Assembly: GCA_020853025.1 (NCBI GenBank)
Contig: JADYZP010000025.1
Coordinates: forward strand, 1 to 64,000
Direction: 5' to 3'
Length of the DNA stretch: 64,000 nt
DNA from: Burkholderiales bacterium
GTDB lineage: Bacteria; Pseudomonadota; Gammaproteobacteria; Burkholderiales; Casimicrobiaceae
This document shows positions 5,240 through 17,596 of this stretch, one piece after another. The position numbers and the translations under genes were made by a program. Each line of letters begins with the position of its first letter. Position 1 is the first letter of the stretch. Below the pieces are notes generated by a model. The model saw only the letters and a program-made list of their open reading frames with translations, did not search any database and was not told the origin of the DNA.

Positions 5240-5962
5240 ATGGAAAAGAGGAACGAGCTTTACCGCGGCAAGGCGAAGACCGTCTACACGACCGACGACC
5301 CGCATTACCTGGTGATGCACTATCGCGATGACGTCTCGGCCTTCGATGGCGTCAAGCTCGCCAAGCTCGACCTGAAGGGGGAGACCAACAATCGGATCAA
5401 CGCGCACGTGATGGGCGTGCTCGAGTCCGCCGGCGTGAAGACGCACTTCGTGCGCCTGTTGAACGAACGCGAATCGCTGGTGAAGGCGATGAAAATGCTG
5501 CCGATCGAGTGTGTGGTGCGCAACGTATGCGCGGGCTCGATGGCCAAGCGCTACGGCATCGACGAAGGCACGCGATTGCCGGAGCCGATCTTCGAATTCT
5601 TCCTGAAAAGCGATGCGCTGCACGATCCGCTGTGCAACGACGACCACATACGCGTGCTGGGTTGGGCCAGCGCCGACGAGATCGGACAGATGAAGACGCT
5701 GACGCACCGCGTCAACGCCGTGCTGAAGCCGCTGTTCGCCGGCGCCGGTATCGATCTCGTCGACTATAAGCTCGAATTTGGCCATCCGCTCGACGATCCG
5801 CAGGGTCCGCTGGTGCTGGGCGACGAGTTCACGCCCGACGGCTGCCGGCTGTGGGATACGAAGAGCGGCGAGAAACTCGACAAGGATCGCTTCCGCCGCG
5901 ATCTCGGAGAAGTCATCGAGCGCTATCGGGAGGTGGCTATAAGGATCGGTGCGCCCTTGTAG
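5240..5962 (+). CDS. purC: phosphoribosylaminoimidazole-succinocarboxamide synthase
   Basis: SAICAR synthetase of de novo purine synthesis: ligates aspartate to CAIR using ATP. 240 residues, the short E. coli-like form. The N-terminal GKAKTVY, the RNVCAGSM segment and LVDYKLEFG are diagnostic. ATG 5240 is preceded by AAGGAC. It follows the MBL-fold gene by 19 bases on the same strand and converges on the next gene. Confidence 0.97.
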   Translation: MEKRNELYRGKAKTVYTTDDPHYLVMHYRDDVSAFDGVKLAKLDLKGETNNRINAHVMGVLESAGVKTHFVRLLNERESLVKAMKMLPIECVVRNVCAGSMAKRYGIDEGTRLPEPIFEFFLKSDALHDPLCNDDHIRVLGWASADEIGQMKTLTHRVNAVLKPLFAGAGIDLVDYKLEFGHPLDDPQGPLVLGDEFTPDGCRLWDTKSGEKLDKDRFRRDLGEVIERYREVAIRIGAPL

Positions 5963-5976
5963 CGGTGACCGGGACT

Positions 5977-6495
5977 TCAGAGCCCCAGCACCGTCGCGCC
6001 GAGCCCCGGTTCTCCGGTCGCCCAGATCTGCTCGAAGCGCGTGACCAGCGGCCGTGCGAGCTGCGGCTGCTCGATCGCGAGTGACGCGCGCGGCTGGTCG
6101 AAGTGAAAGCGATGCAGGAAGTGCCGGCCGTCGGCGATCAGCAGCGGGTCCATCGCGCTTTTCGCTTCCGATCCCGTCCTGTAAACGGTGAACGCGGGCG
6201 TGTGCATTCGAAGCAGCGCGAGCAGTCGCGGGCAGGAGGTCTCGAGCCGGCGCGTGTCGTGGACGATGAGGTCGATTTTCGAACTCGGCGCTCGGCGCAG
6301 GAAAGCGACCAGCCGCTCCGCGCGCGCCGCCGTCTGCCAGCCGCACTGCGAAAGGTCGACGTCGAAGATCTGCAGCCGGTGTTGGGCGAGGTCGATCAGC
6401 TCGTCGATGGCCGCGGCCTGCGCGGCGACCGTGTCGAGCATCGTCTCGCTCGGTTCGATGGGCGGGGGTGATTCAGCCGATGTGGAGGAAGCCAT
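5977..6495 (-). CDS. conserved hypothetical protein (acetyltransferase/phospholipase-D-like fold, DUF7931 type)
   Basis: 172 residues if started at ATG 6495, overlapping the end of the upstream roxA gene by 23 bases; GAGGG lies about 10 bases before that ATG. The C-terminal two thirds (ARAERLVAFLRR, IDLIVHDTRRLE, HFDQPRAS) resemble the small proteins that often follow the ribosomal oxygenase gene in betaproteobacteria. Function unknown. Translational coupling to roxA suggests a linked role, which is inference only. The match to DUF7931 is from memory. Confidence 0.6.
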   Translation of the reverse strand: MASSTSAESPPPIEPSETMLDTVAAQAAAIDELIDLAQHRLQIFDVDLSQCGWQTAARAERLVAFLRRAPSSKIDLIVHDTRRLETSCPRLLALLRMHTPAFTVYRTGSEAKSAMDPLLIADGRHFLHRFHFDQPRASLAIEQPQLARPLVTRFEQIWATGEPGLGATVLGL

Positions 6496-7615
6496 CGCGA
6501 TAGCCCTCGTGCAGGAACTTGATGACGCCAACGCCCAACGATGCTGCCACCGATGGCGGCAGCGCGCGCGCATCGGCGAGCGCCGCCAGCGCGGTACGCG
6601 CCGCCGAGGGCCAAGGCCACGCCTCACCGTTGACGTACATTGCGTCGTCATCATAGAGCCACTGCGTCCGCCGGTCGAGACGCAGGCCTTGCCTGCGGAT
6701 TGCCGCCGCGAAGGCCGCACGCGACATCGGTGCCTCCGGCGGGTCGAAGTACACGTTCGCCTTCGGTTCCGACAGCATCGTGCCGAGAAAGCGCGCGACG
6801 GTCGCCGGATCCCAACGAACCTGCGCCAGCGTGCGCACCGCGTCCCGCCGCATCGCGGCGCCTACGCGCGCCGGCTCGCCGGTGGGCTTCGCGTCCGGAT
6901 CGGCGTAGCGGCCCGGCAGCTCGACGCGGTCGCGCAGGTAGTCGAGGAATTGCTGCGCAAGTTCGGTATGCGTCGCGGCGCGGAAGCCGATCGAATACGT
7001 CGTGCAGGCGTCGATGGCGACACCGTCGTGCGCGTAGGTCGGCGGCAGGTAGAGCATGTCGCCGGGCGCCAGCACCGCGTCGTGCTCCGGCGCGAAGCAG
7101 CGCAGGATCTTCACCGGCAGCCCCGGGCGCAGCGTCAGATCGTCCTGCCGTCCGTAGCGCCAACGCCGCCGGCCGAAGCCCTGCAGCAGGAAGACGTCGT
7201 AGGAGTCGAAATGCGGACCCACGCCGCCGCCCTCGACCGCGTAGCTGACCATCAGGTCGTCCAGGCGCGCGTAGGGCAGGAACGCGAAGCGTCGCAACAG
7301 CGCGTCAGCAGCGTCGCTGTGCAGGTTGACGCCTTGCACCAGCAGCGTCCAATCGCGCTCCGGCAGCGACTTGAAGGCGGCCTTGCGGAAGGGGCCATGC
7401 TCGAGCGTGTAGCGGCGCCCGGTACGCACGACCAGTCGCGACTCGACGTCGTCGCGGCCGGCCAGAGTGACCAGATCCTCGCGCGTGAAGAGGCCTTCGA
7501 AACCGGCCAGCGCGCCGCGGACCAGCAGCGCCTCCTTGTGCCAATGGCGTGACAGAAAGCTGCGGTGCGTGCGCTTACCCAGCAATGACAGGCGCGAGTT
7601 CGAAACCTTGGTCAT
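6473..7615 (-). CDS. roxA: JmjC-type ribosomal oxygenase (RoxA/YcfD-like cupin)
   Basis: Fe(II)/2-oxoglutarate-dependent hydroxylase; the family enzyme hydroxylates an arginine of ribosomal protein L16. 380 residues, full length. Iron ligands H135 and D137 (GPHFDSYDVF) and a distal H196 (PPTYAHDG) are visible, with the conserved LLQGFGRRRW after the first pair. The C-terminal winged-helix-like part is present. The L16 substrate is transferred from the family, not seen here. Confidence 0.9.
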   Translation of the reverse strand: MTKVSNSRLSLLGKRTHRSFLSRHWHKEALLVRGALAGFEGLFTREDLVTLAGRDDVESRLVVRTGRRYTLEHGPFRKAAFKSLPERDWTLLVQGVNLHSDAADALLRRFAFLPYARLDDLMVSYAVEGGGVGPHFDSYDVFLLQGFGRRRWRYGRQDDLTLRPGLPVKILRCFAPEHDAVLAPGDMLYLPPTYAHDGVAIDACTTYSIGFRAATHTELAQQFLDYLRDRVELPGRYADPDAKPTGEPARVGAAMRRDAVRTLAQVRWDPATVARFLGTMLSEPKANVYFDPPEAPMSRAAFAAAIRRQGLRLDRRTQWLYDDDAMYVNGEAWPWPSAARTALAALADARALPPSVAASLGVGVIKFLHEGYRDGFLHIG

Positions 7616-10887: not shown

Positions 10888-12183
10888 CTAGTTCTTCGTT
10901 TCGGCGCGCAGCCCGCTGCGCACCGCCCAGCGCGCATGAGCGAGTTCGCGGACAGTGCGCTCGCTCACGGTTCCGGACACGAGCAGCGTGCGCCGTTTCG
11001 CCTTCAGGTCGCTGCGCGACGTGAACTCGGCCGTCTGCTCATTCCACCAGACATAGTCGAGGTCGGCCGCAACGATGAGTTCGCCGGGATCCGGGGAACC
11101 CACGACAATCACTCCGCTGGTCTTGATCGACCGCAGCGGCGTTTCCCGATGCTGCCGCACGAGCATCAGGACCGCACCGATCAGCGCACGGGCGCGGACC
11201 TCGCCGCCCAGTGTTGCCGCGGATACGATCACGGTTTCACGCCCGCGAACGTCGGGCAGCTTGTCGAGCGCCTCGACCAATGCGGTCTGCAAGGTCGGCG
11301 TGAACCAGCGATTACGGAAGAAGTCGCGGACCGGCCGACCGGTGATTCCCATCATCTGCAACTTGCGCTCGTTACGCGCGACCAGGTCGATCACCGGCGT
11401 GTTCCACACCGAATCGCGGACGACGGAGTCGAATGAGGACGCATACTGCAGCGGCGCCACGACCAGGCCGATGGTGGCGTTGACCGCGAAGTCGCCGACG
11501 AAGGTGGCCCTGGCAACGGCGTCCAGGCGCGGACGCAGCACAGGATTGGTCGTGTACGGATCGATCTGCAGCTGCTTCGCCCACTCGCGACGCGCCTTGT
11601 TGAAGCCGAAGGGGTCGCCCGTGAACGCCGGCGGCTCGGCTTCGCCGGCAAACGGCGCCGAAGTCTGCGTCTGCTGCCGGTTCGACGACATGTCGCTCGC
11701 CGTGTCGCCTACCGCCTGCGCGCCGGTCGTCGCCAGCCGACCGACGCGTCCGAGGATGGTGCCGAAGCCGGAAGCGATGTTTTCGACGGTCCCGACCGGA
11801 TTGGTGAATGCACTGCCAATCAACTGCACCGGCGCCTGCGCGGAGCGAACGAGCGCCTGCTGGAAGGCTTCACTGCGGTTCACCTCGTCGAGCGCCACGA
11901 TCGCCGCGAGTTCTTGGACCCGCGTCCCAAGCATGTGGACACCAAGGACGCGAAACTCGCCTAGCTTGGACTCGATGTTGAAGCGGCCCATGTAGTGCTC
12001 GATGGCGACCGGCTCGCCGACGCTGTGCAGCGGTCCACCGAGCAGCGCCGCAGGCGCAAGGTCCGCTCCGGCGAGCTTTGGCGTGGACTCGAAGCCTCCC
12101 GCCGACTGTGCCGGCGCGGATACCACCATCATGTATGCAACCAAGGCGGTGAAGCCTCGCGCTTTCGTCTTCATGGAAATCAT
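10888..12183 (-). CDS. exported protein of unknown function
   Basis: About 431 residues from ATG 12183, which has a clear Shine-Dalgarno sequence (GAGG, 5-base spacer). It begins with a basic and hydrophobic stretch (KTKARGF, then TALVAYMMVVSAPAQSAGG), a signal peptide predicted to be cut near residue 30. I recognise no catalytic motif. The central region (about 130-200) is Gly/Ser/Thr/Gln-rich and probably flexible; the last third (VIVVGSPDPGELIV, LVSGTVSERTVREL) looks like a small alpha/beta domain. It is 27 bases upstream of mutS on the same strand, but no functional link is evident. Confidence 0.65.
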   Translation of the reverse strand: MISMKTKARGFTALVAYMMVVSAPAQSAGGFESTPKLAGADLAPAALLGGPLHSVGEPVAIEHYMGRFNIESKLGEFRVLGVHMLGTRVQELAAIVALDEVNRSEAFQQALVRSAQAPVQLIGSAFTNPVGTVENIASGFGTILGRVGRLATTGAQAVGDTASDMSSNRQQTQTSAPFAGEAEPPAFTGDPFGFNKARREWAKQLQIDPYTTNPVLRPRLDAVARATFVGDFAVNATIGLVVAPLQYASSFDSVVRDSVWNTPVIDLVARNERKLQMMGITGRPVRDFFRNRWFTPTLQTALVEALDKLPDVRGRETVIVSAATLGGEVRARALIGAVLMLVRQHRETPLRSIKTSGVIVVGSPDPGELIVAADLDYVWWNEQTAEFTSRSDLKAKRRTLLVSGTVSERTVRELAHARWAVRSGLRAETKN

Positions 12184-12237
12184 TCGAACCTCATTGGGAA
12201 AGGGTCTGTTCGCCGATAGGGGCGCCTGCACCGTCGT

Positions 12238-14086: not shown

Positions 14087-14351
14087 ATCCGGGCCATTGC
14101 CGCTGCGCGTGCGACATCGGATGCGTCGATCGGGACGCTTGCGTGGATGCGAATCATCGGCGGGGCTTCGTACGAAGGCTCTGGGACGAGCAAGGGATTG
14201 GTCGGGGTGAGACCAATTTCACTCATCAAAGCATGGAGTTGCAAATGATGGCGAAGTTGTGTGTAATGGCATGGTTCAAAGCGGGCCCTGTTGACAAGTC
14301 CGCCAGTCCGCAGTAACGCCTATAAACACCACGCCAAGGCAGGAGTAGATC

Positions 14352-14903
14352 GTGATCGTTCAAAACGAAATCGCATCGATTGCCTGGGTGGGCATGGGGT
14401 TGGTCGCGCTGGGATTTGCGTATGTGGTCAGCCAGGCCAGCAAGCCGGCGGATGCCGCGCAGGCGCAGGCGGCATACGCGACGTCCAACCGCCTGCGACG
14501 CTGGCTATTCGCCGGATTACTGATCATCGGTATCGCCGTTTCATACGTGACCCTCAAGCCCTTTCCGATTCCCCCCCAGCATGCGCCGTTGCAGGCCGCG
14601 CAGGTGGTCGATGTGGTCTCGCGCCAATGGTCGTGGACGCTCAGCGCGACGCAGGTCAAGGCAGGTGTCCCGATCGAATTCCGCGTGACCAGCGCCGACG
14701 TCAATCATGGTTTCGCAATCTACGCGCCGGATGATCGGATCGTGATCCAGACCCAGGCAATGCCGGGGTTCACCAACAAGATCCTGCACACTTTTCACGA
14801 GCCCGGCAAGTACAGGATCCTGTGCCTGGAATATTGCGGACTGGCCCATCATGGCATGCTGGGCGAGTTCGATGTCGTGGCGGCCGATGGAGCACGCTCA
14901 TGA
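14352..14903 (+). CDS. norS: sNOR-type subunit II with CuA site (cytochrome c oxidase subunit II-like)
   Basis: 183-residue membrane-anchored cupredoxin, the electron-entry subunit. Two N-terminal helices (about 7-27 and 51-68) precede a periplasmic domain with a complete CuA site: H119, C158, C162, H166, M169 (CLEYCGLAHHGM). GTG 14352 has AGGAG six bases upstream. The stop overlaps the ATG of the next gene. Order and size match NorS of the norSY-senC-orf1 cluster described in ammonia oxidisers; the letter assignment is from memory. By sequence alone an oxidase subunit II would be the default call. Confidence 0.75.
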   Translation: MIVQNEIASIAWVGMGLVALGFAYVVSQASKPADAAQAQAAYATSNRLRRWLFAGLLIIGIAVSYVTLKPFPIPPQHAPLQAAQVVDVVSRQWSWTLSATQVKAGVPIEFRVTSADVNHGFAIYAPDDRIVIQTQAMPGFTNKILHTFHEPGKYRILCLEYCGLAHHGMLGEFDVVAADGARS

Positions 14904-16429
14904 GCGCACTCACACTTTATCCGGAGAACGAGAGGCTTCCCCGGAACGAGCGTATCGCCTTCAACCTGTACATGATCACCGCGCTGGTTCTGTTCGTGCT
15001 GATGATGGCGCTGGGTCTGACCATGCGCATGACGCAGGCCACCTGGACCGGCATCGGTCCAGTGCTTTTCTACCAGATCCTGACCATGCACGGCGCCGGC
15101 ATGGTCGGCACGATGAGTCTGGCCACGCTCGCGGTGATGTGGTTTTTCCTGCGCAAGTACGTACACCTGCATCTGTGGGCGTTTCTGGCCAACTACGTGT
15201 TGTTCATGCTCGGCGCGCTGGCGATCATCGGTGCGGTTTTCATCGGCGGCTATGCGGGGGCGTGGACGTTCCTTTACCCGTTGCCGGTGCAATCGATGGC
15301 CATATGGAGCGTCAATGCCGCTGCATTGTTCATGGTCGGATATCTGTTGATTGGCGTCGGCATGTTGCTGTTCTACCTGGATGCAGCGGCAGCCATCATT
15401 CGTAGCTTCGGCAACCTCGGCAGGGGCCTTGGTCTGCAGTGGCTGTTCGGCGGCGACATCGACCAGTCCCACCCGAAGGCTGTGGTCGCCAGCACGATGG
15501 TGATCATTGCCAACTCGCTTGGCATTCTCGCCGGCGCGGTGGTGCTGGTGATGAGCCTCGTCAACGCGTATTTCCCGGAAATGGCGCTCAATGCGCTGCT
15601 GGCAAAGAACCTGATCTACTGGTTCGGCCACATGGTGATCAACGCCACCATCTACATGGGTGTGATCGCGGTGTACGAATTGTTGGCGAGGTATAGCGGC
15701 AGACCCTATCCGGTGACCCGTCCGTTCCTGTGGTCGTGGGCGGTCAGCACGCTATTCGTGATCATCGTGTTTCCGCACCACTTGCTGATGGATTATGCCC
15801 AGCCGCGCTGGATGTCGGTGATGGGCCAAGTGGTCTCGTTTGGTGCCGGCTTCCCGGTGTTCCTGGTGACTGCATACGGCGCACTGACCAATATCTATCG
15901 CTCGAACATGCGCTGGAAATTGCCGTCGAGACTCATGATACTGGGGCTGTTCGGCTGGGCGGTTGGGATCGTTCCGGCGATCATCGACGGCACCATCAGT
16001 GTCAACCAGGTCATGCACAATACCCAGTGGGTACCCGGGCATTTCCACTTCTACCTGCTGATCGGCGCACTGCCGATGGTCCTGGCCCTGTTGTTCCATG
16101 TGATCGGCGCGCGCGCGCGGTCTTCCATTGAAATGGCCACCGACAAACTGAGCCTGGCCATCTACGCGCTCGGCGCAGTGGCATTCAGCCTGGCCTTTCT
16201 CGACGCCGGACGCCAGAGCGTGCCGCGCCGTTTTGCGATACATATGCCGGAATGGATACCCAACGACCAGGTCGGTGCGATTGCCTCCATGCTGGTGATA
16301 CTGGGTATGTTGTGGTTCGCCGGCCGCGTCATCGCGGGACTGTTGCAAGCGCCCGATGAGGGCGGATCCGGATCCGCCGTCGACGCGAAGGCGCCGCTTA
16401 ATGCCGGTCCGTCGCACGCTACTGGCTAG
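14900..16429 (+). CDS. norY: heme-copper oxidase superfamily catalytic subunit I, probable NO reductase (sNOR)
   Basis: 509 residues, about 12 transmembrane helices. All six metal-binding histidines are present: H64 and H383 for the low-spin heme, H381 for the high-spin heme, H244, H293 and H294 for the second metal. The residue four after H244 is N248 (GHMVIN), where A- and B-family oxidases have the cross-linked Tyr, and the C-family position six before H293 is V287. Loss of that Tyr is a mark of NO reductases, so I infer NO reduction at the cytoplasmic membrane with electrons from the CuA subunit. O2 reduction cannot be fully excluded. ATG 14900 overlaps the norS stop. Confidence 0.75.
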   Translation: MSALTLYPENERLPRNERIAFNLYMITALVLFVLMMALGLTMRMTQATWTGIGPVLFYQILTMHGAGMVGTMSLATLAVMWFFLRKYVHLHLWAFLANYVLFMLGALAIIGAVFIGGYAGAWTFLYPLPVQSMAIWSVNAAALFMVGYLLIGVGMLLFYLDAAAAIIRSFGNLGRGLGLQWLFGGDIDQSHPKAVVASTMVIIANSLGILAGAVVLVMSLVNAYFPEMALNALLAKNLIYWFGHMVINATIYMGVIAVYELLARYSGRPYPVTRPFLWSWAVSTLFVIIVFPHHLLMDYAQPRWMSVMGQVVSFGAGFPVFLVTAYGALTNIYRSNMRWKLPSRLMILGLFGWAVGIVPAIIDGTISVNQVMHNTQWVPGHFHFYLLIGALPMVLALLFHVIGARARSSIEMATDKLSLAIYALGAVAFSLAFLDAGRQSVPRRFAIHMPEWIPNDQVGAIASMLVILGMLWFAGRVIAGLLQAPDEGGSGSAVDAKAPLNAGPSHATG

Positions 16430-17018
16430 CAGCGTCCTGCTGGTTGCCGGTGCCATCGTTCTGGCCGCGGTCACCGACCGGTTCCAGGTATTCACGACCG
16501 AAACCGCCCGCCGCGCCGAGGTCCGCGCGCATCCGCGTGCGGTGTCGGCGATCGCGCTTGAAACCCAGTCGGGTGCGCGCATCAATCTTGCCGACCTGCG
16601 GGGCAAGTGGCTGCTGGTCGATTTCATCTATACCCGTTGCATCACCTACTGCTCGATACTGGGCGGCGAGTTCGCTCAGCTGCAGGACCGGCTTGCCGCA
16701 CCGTTGGCGCTCGGCAAGGTGCAGTTGCTCAGCATCAGCTTCGATCCGACTCATGACACGCCGACGCAGCTTGGCGGTTACCTCGAACGCTTCCGTAGCC
16801 GCGGGGCAGGCTGGCTTGCGGCGCGGCCACTGGATGCGGACGGATTGCAAACGCTCAAGCGTGAATTCGGCATTACCGTGATTCCTGATGGACTGGGCGG
16901 CTACGTGCACAACGCTGCCATCCAGGTCGTCGATCCGCAGGGCCGACTGGTGGATATCCTCGACATCGGGAATCCCGAACTCGTCGGTGAGACTGCATTG
17001 CGGTACATCAACCAATGA
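16401..17018 (+). CDS. senC: SCO1/SenC family copper chaperone
   Basis: 205-residue membrane-anchored thioredoxin-fold protein that delivers copper to CuA centres. An N-terminal helix (about 8-24) is followed by the metal motif C80-x3-C84 (TRCITYC) and a later His in GGYVHNA; the family FDP signature appears in SISFDPTHDTP. The start overlaps the end of subunit I by 29 bases and its stop overlaps the next start (ATGA), so translation is coupled. Role here: metallation of the CuA site of NorS, as in senC of the sNOR clusters. Confidence 0.88.
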   Translation: MPVRRTLLASSVLLVAGAIVLAAVTDRFQVFTTETARRAEVRAHPRAVSAIALETQSGARINLADLRGKWLLVDFIYTRCITYCSILGGEFAQLQDRLAAPLALGKVQLLSISFDPTHDTPTQLGGYLERFRSRGAGWLAARPLDADGLQTLKREFGITVIPDGLGGYVHNAAIQVVDPQGRLVDILDIGNPELVGETALRYINQ

Positions 17019-17596
17019 ATCCGATCATGCAGCGCCACGGTGTCCGCTTTGCGATCGCCCTTTACGCCGTCCTGCTGTTGCCACCGGTGAAGCAGCTGCT
17101 CGACGCAACGATGACCGCCCAGATGCTGCTGCAGATCCCATTGCTGATCGTGGCCGGATACCTGTTGCGCGATGCGGTACCGCAGCGGGCGCGGCTGGAG
17201 ATCGCGAAGTGGAACCATCGCGGCATCAGCGGCTTGGTGCTGGCAAGCGTCGCTACCATGGTGTGGATGCTGCCGCGTCTGCTCGATGCCGCGACTTCCG
17301 AGCCGCTGGTCGCCGCGGCCAAATACATTTCGGTGCCGTTGCTGATCGGCCTGCCGCTCGGTTTGAGTTGGCCACATATGGGATTCGTCATCAAGGGTTT
17401 CCTTATGCTGGAGGTCATCGCGACATTCTTTCGGCTCGGCTGGCTGTACCTGATTTCACCGGTCCGGCTGTGCAGCAATTTTCTGCTCGAAGACCAGCAG
17501 CGCCTCGGCGAGTACATGCTGGTGATCGGAGCCGCCATTCTGGCGGCGGTGGCCGGCCGGCTCGTGTGGGGCAACATCGGTGAATCGCGGAATTAA
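17015..17596 (+). CDS. small integral membrane protein, fourth gene of the sNOR cluster (orf1)
   Basis: 193 residues with about five hydrophobic segments (around 12-30, 36-52, 70-90, 103-120, 125-145 and near the C-terminus). No catalytic motif; scattered Trp/His (WNHRG, WPHMG) lie at helix ends. It overlaps senC by 4 bases. The sNOR clusters of ammonia oxidisers carry an unnamed membrane protein (orf1) in this place, so I assign it by position. Possible roles are assembly or anchoring. Its stop overlaps the IS66 remnant that reads the other way. Confidence 0.65.
   Translation: MNPIMQRHGVRFAIALYAVLLLPPVKQLLDATMTAQMLLQIPLLIVAGYLLRDAVPQRARLEIAKWNHRGISGLVLASVATMVWMLPRLLDAATSEPLVAAAKYISVPLLIGLPLGLSWPHMGFVIKGFLMLEVIATFFRLGWLYLISPVRLCSNFLLEDQQRLGEYMLVIGAAILAAVAGRLVWGNIGESRN

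What the first reader, a model, noticed from the sequence alone, without database searches (positions are those of the whole stretch)
14352..17596. Heme-copper cluster that looks like an NO reductase of the sNOR type, not an oxidase
Catalytic subunit I keeps all six metal-binding His (H64, H244, H293, H294, H381, H383) but has N248 where A/B-family oxidases have the cross-linked Tyr, and V287 at the C-family Tyr position. Subunit II has a full CuA site, and the cluster ends with SCO1/SenC and a small membrane protein, matching the norSY-senC-orf1 layout known from ammonia oxidisers. Automated annotation would call this a cytochrome c oxidase. It is worth recording outside nitrifiers.
Basis: partly seen in the sequence, partly recalled or inferred. 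Interest (0 to 1): 0.75.

Follow-up and report, generated by a model that had tools for sequence, protein, structure and literature searches.

The report
Laterally acquired sNOR-type nitric oxide reductase
This four-gene cluster encodes a copper-and-heme membrane enzyme of a known family (sNOR) that looks like an oxygen-breathing enzyme but most likely turns toxic nitric oxide into nitrous oxide; the family is already recorded in bacteria other than nitrifiers, so this is an ordinary, apparently borrowed, new copy.

Summary
Window 14352-17596 is norS (CuA subunit II), norY (heme-copper subunit I), SCO/SenC and orf1, overlapping genes on the + strand. The six His, N248 and V287 are as stated and invariant in 91 of 91 aligned rows (86 distinct sequences). 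Subunit I lies in one clade with the named sNORs of Nitrosomonas europaea and Nitrococcus mobilis, apart from the A-family, eNOR-like and single ba3 rows. The four-gene layout recurs in 78 of 80 named loci. So it is an sNOR; NO reduction is inferred, not measured, and one paper argues for a high-affinity oxidase (PMC6967387). It is not new outside nitrifiers (PMC8756737 lists Silicibacter, Deinococcus, Geobacillus); 6 of the 80 loci bear nitrifier names. Added here: this copy is probably laterally acquired (81% identical to two Alcaligenaceae, 53-56% to two congeners' copies; one clade rejected); the genome has two narG-like genes, two NnrS and an eNOR-like HCO but no detected nirK, credible nirS or nosZ; and Y252, one helical turn beyond the lost cross-link Tyr, is Tyr in 91 of 91 rows but in none of the oxidase and eNOR-like rows compared.

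The parts
14352..14903 (+). norS: CuA electron-entry subunit II (183 aa)
   Evidence: COX2 Pfam; CxExCGxxHxxM plus His; homologue before norY in 78 of 80 named loci
14900..16429 (+). norY: heme-copper catalytic subunit I (509 aa, 12 long helices in the model, one of them broken), six His, N248 in place of the cross-link Tyr, Y252 and Y259 below it
16401..17018 (+). SCO1/SenC copper chaperone, likely for CuA, with CITYC (C80, C84) and H170
   Evidence: C80, C84 and H170 in 93 of 93 rows
17015..17596 (+). orf1: 193-aa hydrophobic protein of unknown function, conserved with the cluster
   Evidence: no Pfam or NCBIfam hit; homologue in all 80 named loci, cut by the locus end in L105
17596..17916 (-). 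transposase-like fragment (HTH_Tnp_1) directly downstream, tail to tail

Best explanation
The cluster encodes an sNOR. Electrons from a c-type cytochrome enter CuA in NorS, pass to the low-spin heme (H64/H383) and on to the high-spin heme (H381)-CuB (H244/H293/H294) site, where two NO are joined to N2O. The O2-splitting chemistry that uses the His-Tyr cross-link is lost because Tyr is replaced by Asn. SCO loads copper into CuA; orf1 probably helps assembly. In this bacterium it would remove or respire NO that arises from outside, from nitrite during nitrate respiration, or from an undetected nitrite reductase. Shown here: genes, residues, clade, layout. Inferred: electron path, metal roles of the His (from family knowledge), NO as substrate, role.
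For: Clade: the window and 44 other sNOR rows form one side of a branch (SH-aLRT 95); they include N. europaea, Nitrococcus and Ruegeria. Residues: N248 91 of 91 rows; Table A4 of PMC8756737 gives N for sNOR against Y for O2 reductases. The Bacillus azotoformans cluster that PMC3475470 identifies as the purified qCuANOR (later bNOR) also has Asn there. Layout: 78 of 80 named loci, as norSY-senC-orf1 NE0683-86 in N. europaea (PMC4940428). Context: an Rrf2 regulator in 19 of 82 loci, 15 of them within 150 bp; of 7 tested, 6 score best with NsrR, the NO sensor, all below its cut-off; a formate/nitrite transporter in 18 of 82, a sigma-54 activator in 10, qNOR in 3. Own genome: two NnrS, two narG-like genes.
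Against: No activity data here. The window's own flanks hold no NO gene: a ceramidase-like and a zinc-dehydrogenase gene, a transposase fragment, DeoR. No convincing FNR/DNR box upstream. No nirK and only a 101-residue D1-type hit, in what looks by eye like a quinohemoprotein amine dehydrogenase cluster, so no NO source was found in a 94% complete genome. The N. europaea sNOR genes rise under O2 limitation and were argued to encode an oxidase (PMC6967387). The AlphaFold model matches O2 reductases, with no NOR among the 50 rows shown in either list.
Confidence: 0.82

Rival explanations
1. It is a high-affinity terminal oxidase of B-family descent that works without the cross-linked Tyr, perhaps using Y252 instead.
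For: Transcription of the N. europaea homologue rises 2.7- to 10.8-fold under O2 limitation (PMC6967387); all six His and CuA kept; fold matches O2 reductases; invariant Y252 one turn from N248.
Against: All A-family and ba3 rows compared have Tyr at H+4; the C family has it at H-6 of helix VII, where this family has V287 (91 of 91); NsrR-like and qNOR neighbours at related loci; a characterised NO reductase shares the Asn.
Confidence: 0.12
2. It is bNOR (qCuANOR type I) rather than sNOR: the same reaction in a related family that also has Asn.
For: bNOR also has Tyr to Asn and a SenC gene plus a membrane protein beside it; PMC3475470 itself counts the Nitrosomonas eutropha sNOR among the close homologues of its type I.
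Against: Type I subunit I is 1683-1707 nt, and the paper gives 12 instead of 13 helices for the shorter type II (1482 nt); the window's gene is 1530 nt with 12 long helices in the model. The tree joins it to the named sNORs, but no bNOR sequence was in the tree.
Confidence: 0.03
3. The contig is misbinned or chimeric and the cluster belongs to another species.
For: The closest copies are in other families; the genome is a 71-contig assembly with 2% contamination; the matches of the left and right flanks lie on different contigs in the congeners, so no empty site was seen.
Against: Window 9000 to about 10860 matches most congeners at 71-79%, and 18056-23714 matches two of them (G014, G009) at 73-76%.
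Confidence: 0.03

Closest known systems
sNOR of Nitrosomonas europaea (NorSY, NE0683-86; here L080 from strain ATCC 25978)
   Same: Four-gene layout, six His, Asn at the Tyr place, CuA
   Different: About 50% identical in subunit I; the window's host is not a known nitrifier; a formate/nitrite transporter lies next to the N. europaea cluster, none was seen here
sNOR of Nitrococcus mobilis Nb-231 (L052)
   Same: 71% identical subunit I, same subclade and layout; a paper I could not read is cited by PMC6967387 as first indirect evidence of its NO reductase activity
   Different: Nitrite oxidiser; a gene that looks by eye like flavohemoglobin lies 2.6 kb upstream
Bacillus azotoformans qCuANOR type II and type I (bNOR), PMC3475470
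   Same: CuA subunit, Asn in place of Tyr, SenC and a membrane protein; type II agrees in gene sizes and in 12 helices
   Different: Type I is longer; sequences not compared here; that paper groups sNOR with type I, against my size comparison
eNOR
   Same: Oxidase-like NOR with a cupredoxin subunit (PMC8756737)
   Different: Gln, not Asn, at the Tyr place; such a gene lies elsewhere in this genome (L003)

Membership tests
sNOR | Subunit I in one clade with named sNORs of ammonia oxidisers | tested here: met
   45 rows on one side of a branch, SH-aLRT 95, with N. europaea, N. halophila, Nitrococcus (quick tree; rooting unsure)
sNOR | Asn in place of the cross-link Tyr, six His kept | tested here: met
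   91 of 91 rows; Table A4 of PMC8756737
sNOR | CuA subunit II | tested here: met
   Strict motif in the window and in 89 of 92 subunit II ORFs (window's copy L007 among them); exceptions L058 (Ala for Glu), L028 (Ala for Gly), L033 (ORF cut)
sNOR | norSY-senC-orf1 layout | tested here: met
   Window and 78 of 80 named loci; in L098 and L115 the contig starts inside norY
sNOR | NO reduction to N2O | not testable with these tools
   Needs enzymology
bNOR (qCuANOR type I) | Subunit I of about 560-568 aa with 13 helices | tested here: not met
   509 aa, 12 long helices in the model against 1683-1707 nt and 13
bNOR (qCuANOR type I) | Groups with Bacillus CbaA1 | not tested
   No reference sequence was at hand
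A- or B-family O2 reductase | Cross-link Tyr on helix VI at H+4 | tested here: not met
   N248
C-family O2 reductase | Cross-link Tyr on helix VII at H-6 | tested here: not met
   V287, 91 of 91 rows; Tyr in own ccoN

The most novel reading that the evidence does not exclude
sNOR did not simply lose the catalytic tyrosine: a Tyr sits one helical turn further along helix VI in every row seen (H244-x3-N248-x3-Y252), at a place that is Leu or Met in the A-family and ba3 rows compared and Ala or Ser in the eNOR-like rows, and above the ba3 K-path Tyr (Y259). It could act as a displaced proton or electron relay that makes NO reduction electrogenic or leaves a residual O2 activity.
Probability: 0.12. 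Interest if true: 0.55.

Novelty: new member of a known kind. Interest (0 to 1): 0.28.

Why it matters
sNOR genes tend to be annotated as cytochrome c oxidases (PMC11388526 says so for KEGG), so NO and N2O budgets can miss them. This copy adds an apparently laterally acquired case in a Burkholderiales-like draft genome without detected nir or nos genes, that is, a possible nitrate reducer and NO consumer that ends at N2O. The family still needs the biochemistry that would settle whether it reduces NO, O2 or both, and the invariant Y252 gives a concrete residue to test.

Tried and rejected
An FNR/DNR-type box upstream: the nearest match before norS, 14144-14157, has two mismatches and lies about 200 bp away; the window as a whole has more such matches than shuffles (23 against a mean of 8.7), spread over it, so this says nothing about the cluster.

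nirS: PF02239 gave one hit of 30.5 bits over 101 residues, just over the cut-off; its gene stands in what looks by eye like a quinohemoprotein amine dehydrogenase cluster, so rejected. nosZ: both models (TIGR04246, TIGR04244) give only weak hits to the CuA domains of the eNOR-like subunit II and, for the first, of norS itself.

Neighbour control: a gene that looks like accD, unrelated to NO, was also adjacent in 5 of 82 loci, so shared ancestry alone can produce adjacency. The HCR and Hmp counts (4 and 2) share a reductase domain and are not used.

Tree limits: qNOR, ccoN and L006 have very long branches and the chosen outgroup did not hold together; the quick tree gives SH-aLRT only; one B-family row; no bNOR, gNOR or nNOR rows; some sNOR rows of the alignment were thinned out before (12 of the A2 rows). 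The clade test was named after one search had been seen.

Papers: PMC11214002 (Murali 2024) and PMC5665590 (Nitrococcus) are not held; a search for sNOR with Rhodanobacter found none in the held library. The papers cited were seen as passages found by term, none whole.

Full report
What is there. Four overlapping genes run on the + strand from 14352 to 17596: a CuA subunit II, a heme-copper subunit I, SCO/SenC and a 193-aa hydrophobic protein. Pfam gives COX2, COX1, SCO1-SenC and nothing; no NCBIfam model reaches its cut-off. In an alignment of 91 rows, window included, H64, H244, H293, H294, H381, H383, N248 and V287 are all 91 of 91; 86 of the rows are distinct, and two truncated rows, one split row and the window's duplicate were left out. 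In the profile alignment to solved ba3 oxidases N248 stands at the cross-link Tyr. V287 is six before H293, where the genome's own ccoN has Tyr.

Which family. All four genes in this order and strand occur in 78 of 80, including N. europaea and Nitrococcus; in L054 orf1 lies 1.1 kb further on, and in L098 and L115 the contig begins inside norY. In a tree of 61 HCO rows the window falls with 44 other sNORs (SH-aLRT 95), in a 32-row set (99) that also holds Nitrosomonas and a 15-row set (98) that holds Nitrococcus; seven A-family rows, three eNOR-like rows, one ba3, ccoN, qNOR and L006 lie outside, and two divergent Asn-type rows (L028, L123) are next to it. A printed table gives N as the sNOR residue, Q for eNOR, D for gNOR, E for cNOR and qNOR, N for CuANOR (PMC8756737 Table A4, passage). 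Because CuANOR/bNOR shares the Asn, size matters: type I subunit I is 1683-1707 nt, while the second Bacillus type is 1482 nt in B. azotoformans with 12 helices instead of 13 (PMC3475470, passages). The window has 1530 nt and 12 long helices in the model, one broken. Against this reading, PMC3475470 itself puts the N. eutropha sNOR with its type I; PMC11388526 keeps bNOR and sNOR apart.

Function. PMC3475470 identifies the genes of a purified Bacillus CuA NO reductase, with Asn at this position. For sNOR itself the texts I read call the function proposed (PMC6967387; PMC11388526). PMC6967387 argues for a high-affinity oxidase, on transcription and on family resemblance. Gene neighbours lean towards NO: Rrf2 regulators in 19 of 82 loci (15 within 150 bp), formate/nitrite transporters in 18, one sigma-54 activator family in 10, qNOR in 3. 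Eleven of the 19 Rrf2 proteins have the C-x4-C-x5-C spacing that I recall for NsrR, and 6 of 7 tested score best with the NsrR model though below its cut-off, the seventh slightly better with RirA. The window's own copy has no such neighbour, and an accD-like gene was adjacent in 5 of 82.

Tyrosine. Tyr in all 91 rows are Y58, Y252, Y259 and Y385. Y259 aligns with ba3 Y248 of the K path (ba3 numbering partly recalled); Y244 and S309 of that path are V255 and V320 here, and T324 aligns with T315 or, without the gap, close to T312. The Glu near the N-terminus of subunit II is not conserved. Y252 is one turn beyond N248: 91 of 91 rows, T. roseum among them, and also in five further close rows and one divergent row (some may repeat named records). 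The place is Leu in the ba3 rows, Leu in six and Met in one of the seven A-family rows, and Ala in one and Ser in two of three eNOR-like rows. Sources disagree on coupling: Table A4 predicts no proton channel for sNOR, PMC8906906 calls it electrogenic.

Genome and origin. sNOR-like genes, window included each time, occur in 3 of 22 genomes of the genus, 9 of 349 of the order and 7 of 185 of the class, one of them the divergent L123. The window's copy is 81% identical to those of two Alcaligenaceae but 53-56% to the two congeners' copies, which sit in another subclade; a tree that holds the window, the two congeners and L073 (the same record as one of them) together is rejected (p-AU 2e-7). Sequence left of the cluster is shared with most congeners and right of it with two (list cut), though on different contigs there, so no empty site is shown. 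A transposase fragment abuts the cluster. Its GC is 61% against 66% for the window (6% of 3.2-kb stretches are as low; modest, and the next genes are 62-64%). Lateral acquisition is the simplest reading. At DNA level six near copies are 70-74% identical, so it is not recent from any of them.

Nitrogen genes in the same genome: two narG-like (2138 and 1491 bits; the second with one TGA in the matched stretch), two NnrS, one eNOR-like HCO with Gln, no nirK, no credible nirS, no nosZ by either model, and no cNOR or qNOR recognised among six PF00115 hits (by the motifs; L004 is a fragment at a contig end). A NirDL-like siroheme decarboxylase hints at heme d1 synthesis, so a missed nitrite reductase is possible.

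Verdict. A correct observation and a correct family call; the family and its spread beyond nitrifiers are known. New member of a known kind, modest interest.

Noticed in passing
L006 (G000:C33, about 5596-7272 of the contig, - strand): A distant heme-copper subunit I-like protein (COX1 44 bits) with a His set (HVDLSV, GSGHVLQF, VEHHRLQ, IPAHYHG) but Phe at H+4. It sits by a CtaA-like gene, a Crp-type regulator, a NirDL-like siroheme decarboxylase and a cytochrome b fused to a ferredoxin/NAD reductase part; I could not name its family.
   Followed up: partly
L003 and L125 15583-17866 (G000:C33): An eNOR-like pair (subunit I with GHSAQQ, Gln at the Tyr place; subunit II weakly COX2) with SCO, a U32 peptidase and, by eye, a heme O synthase-like frame nearby, about 10 kb from L006. 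The motif GHS[AS]QQ was seen in 11 of the 37 genomes of the family searched, a lower bound.
   Followed up: partly
L027 (Parasedimentitalea marina plasmid pW43B): The sNOR subunit I reading frame is split into two frames and has no listed gene, so it may be a broken gene.
   Followed up: no
   Followed up: partly
L156 and L167 (G000:C40 47121-48841): An Rrf2 regulator gene lies just upstream of an NnrS gene in the window's genome, a likely NO-responsive pair.
   Followed up: no
window 10888-12231, - strand: A 447-aa reading frame with no Pfam match (a 428-aa form was searched), between a ceramidase-like gene and a stretch conserved in the genus.
   Followed up: no
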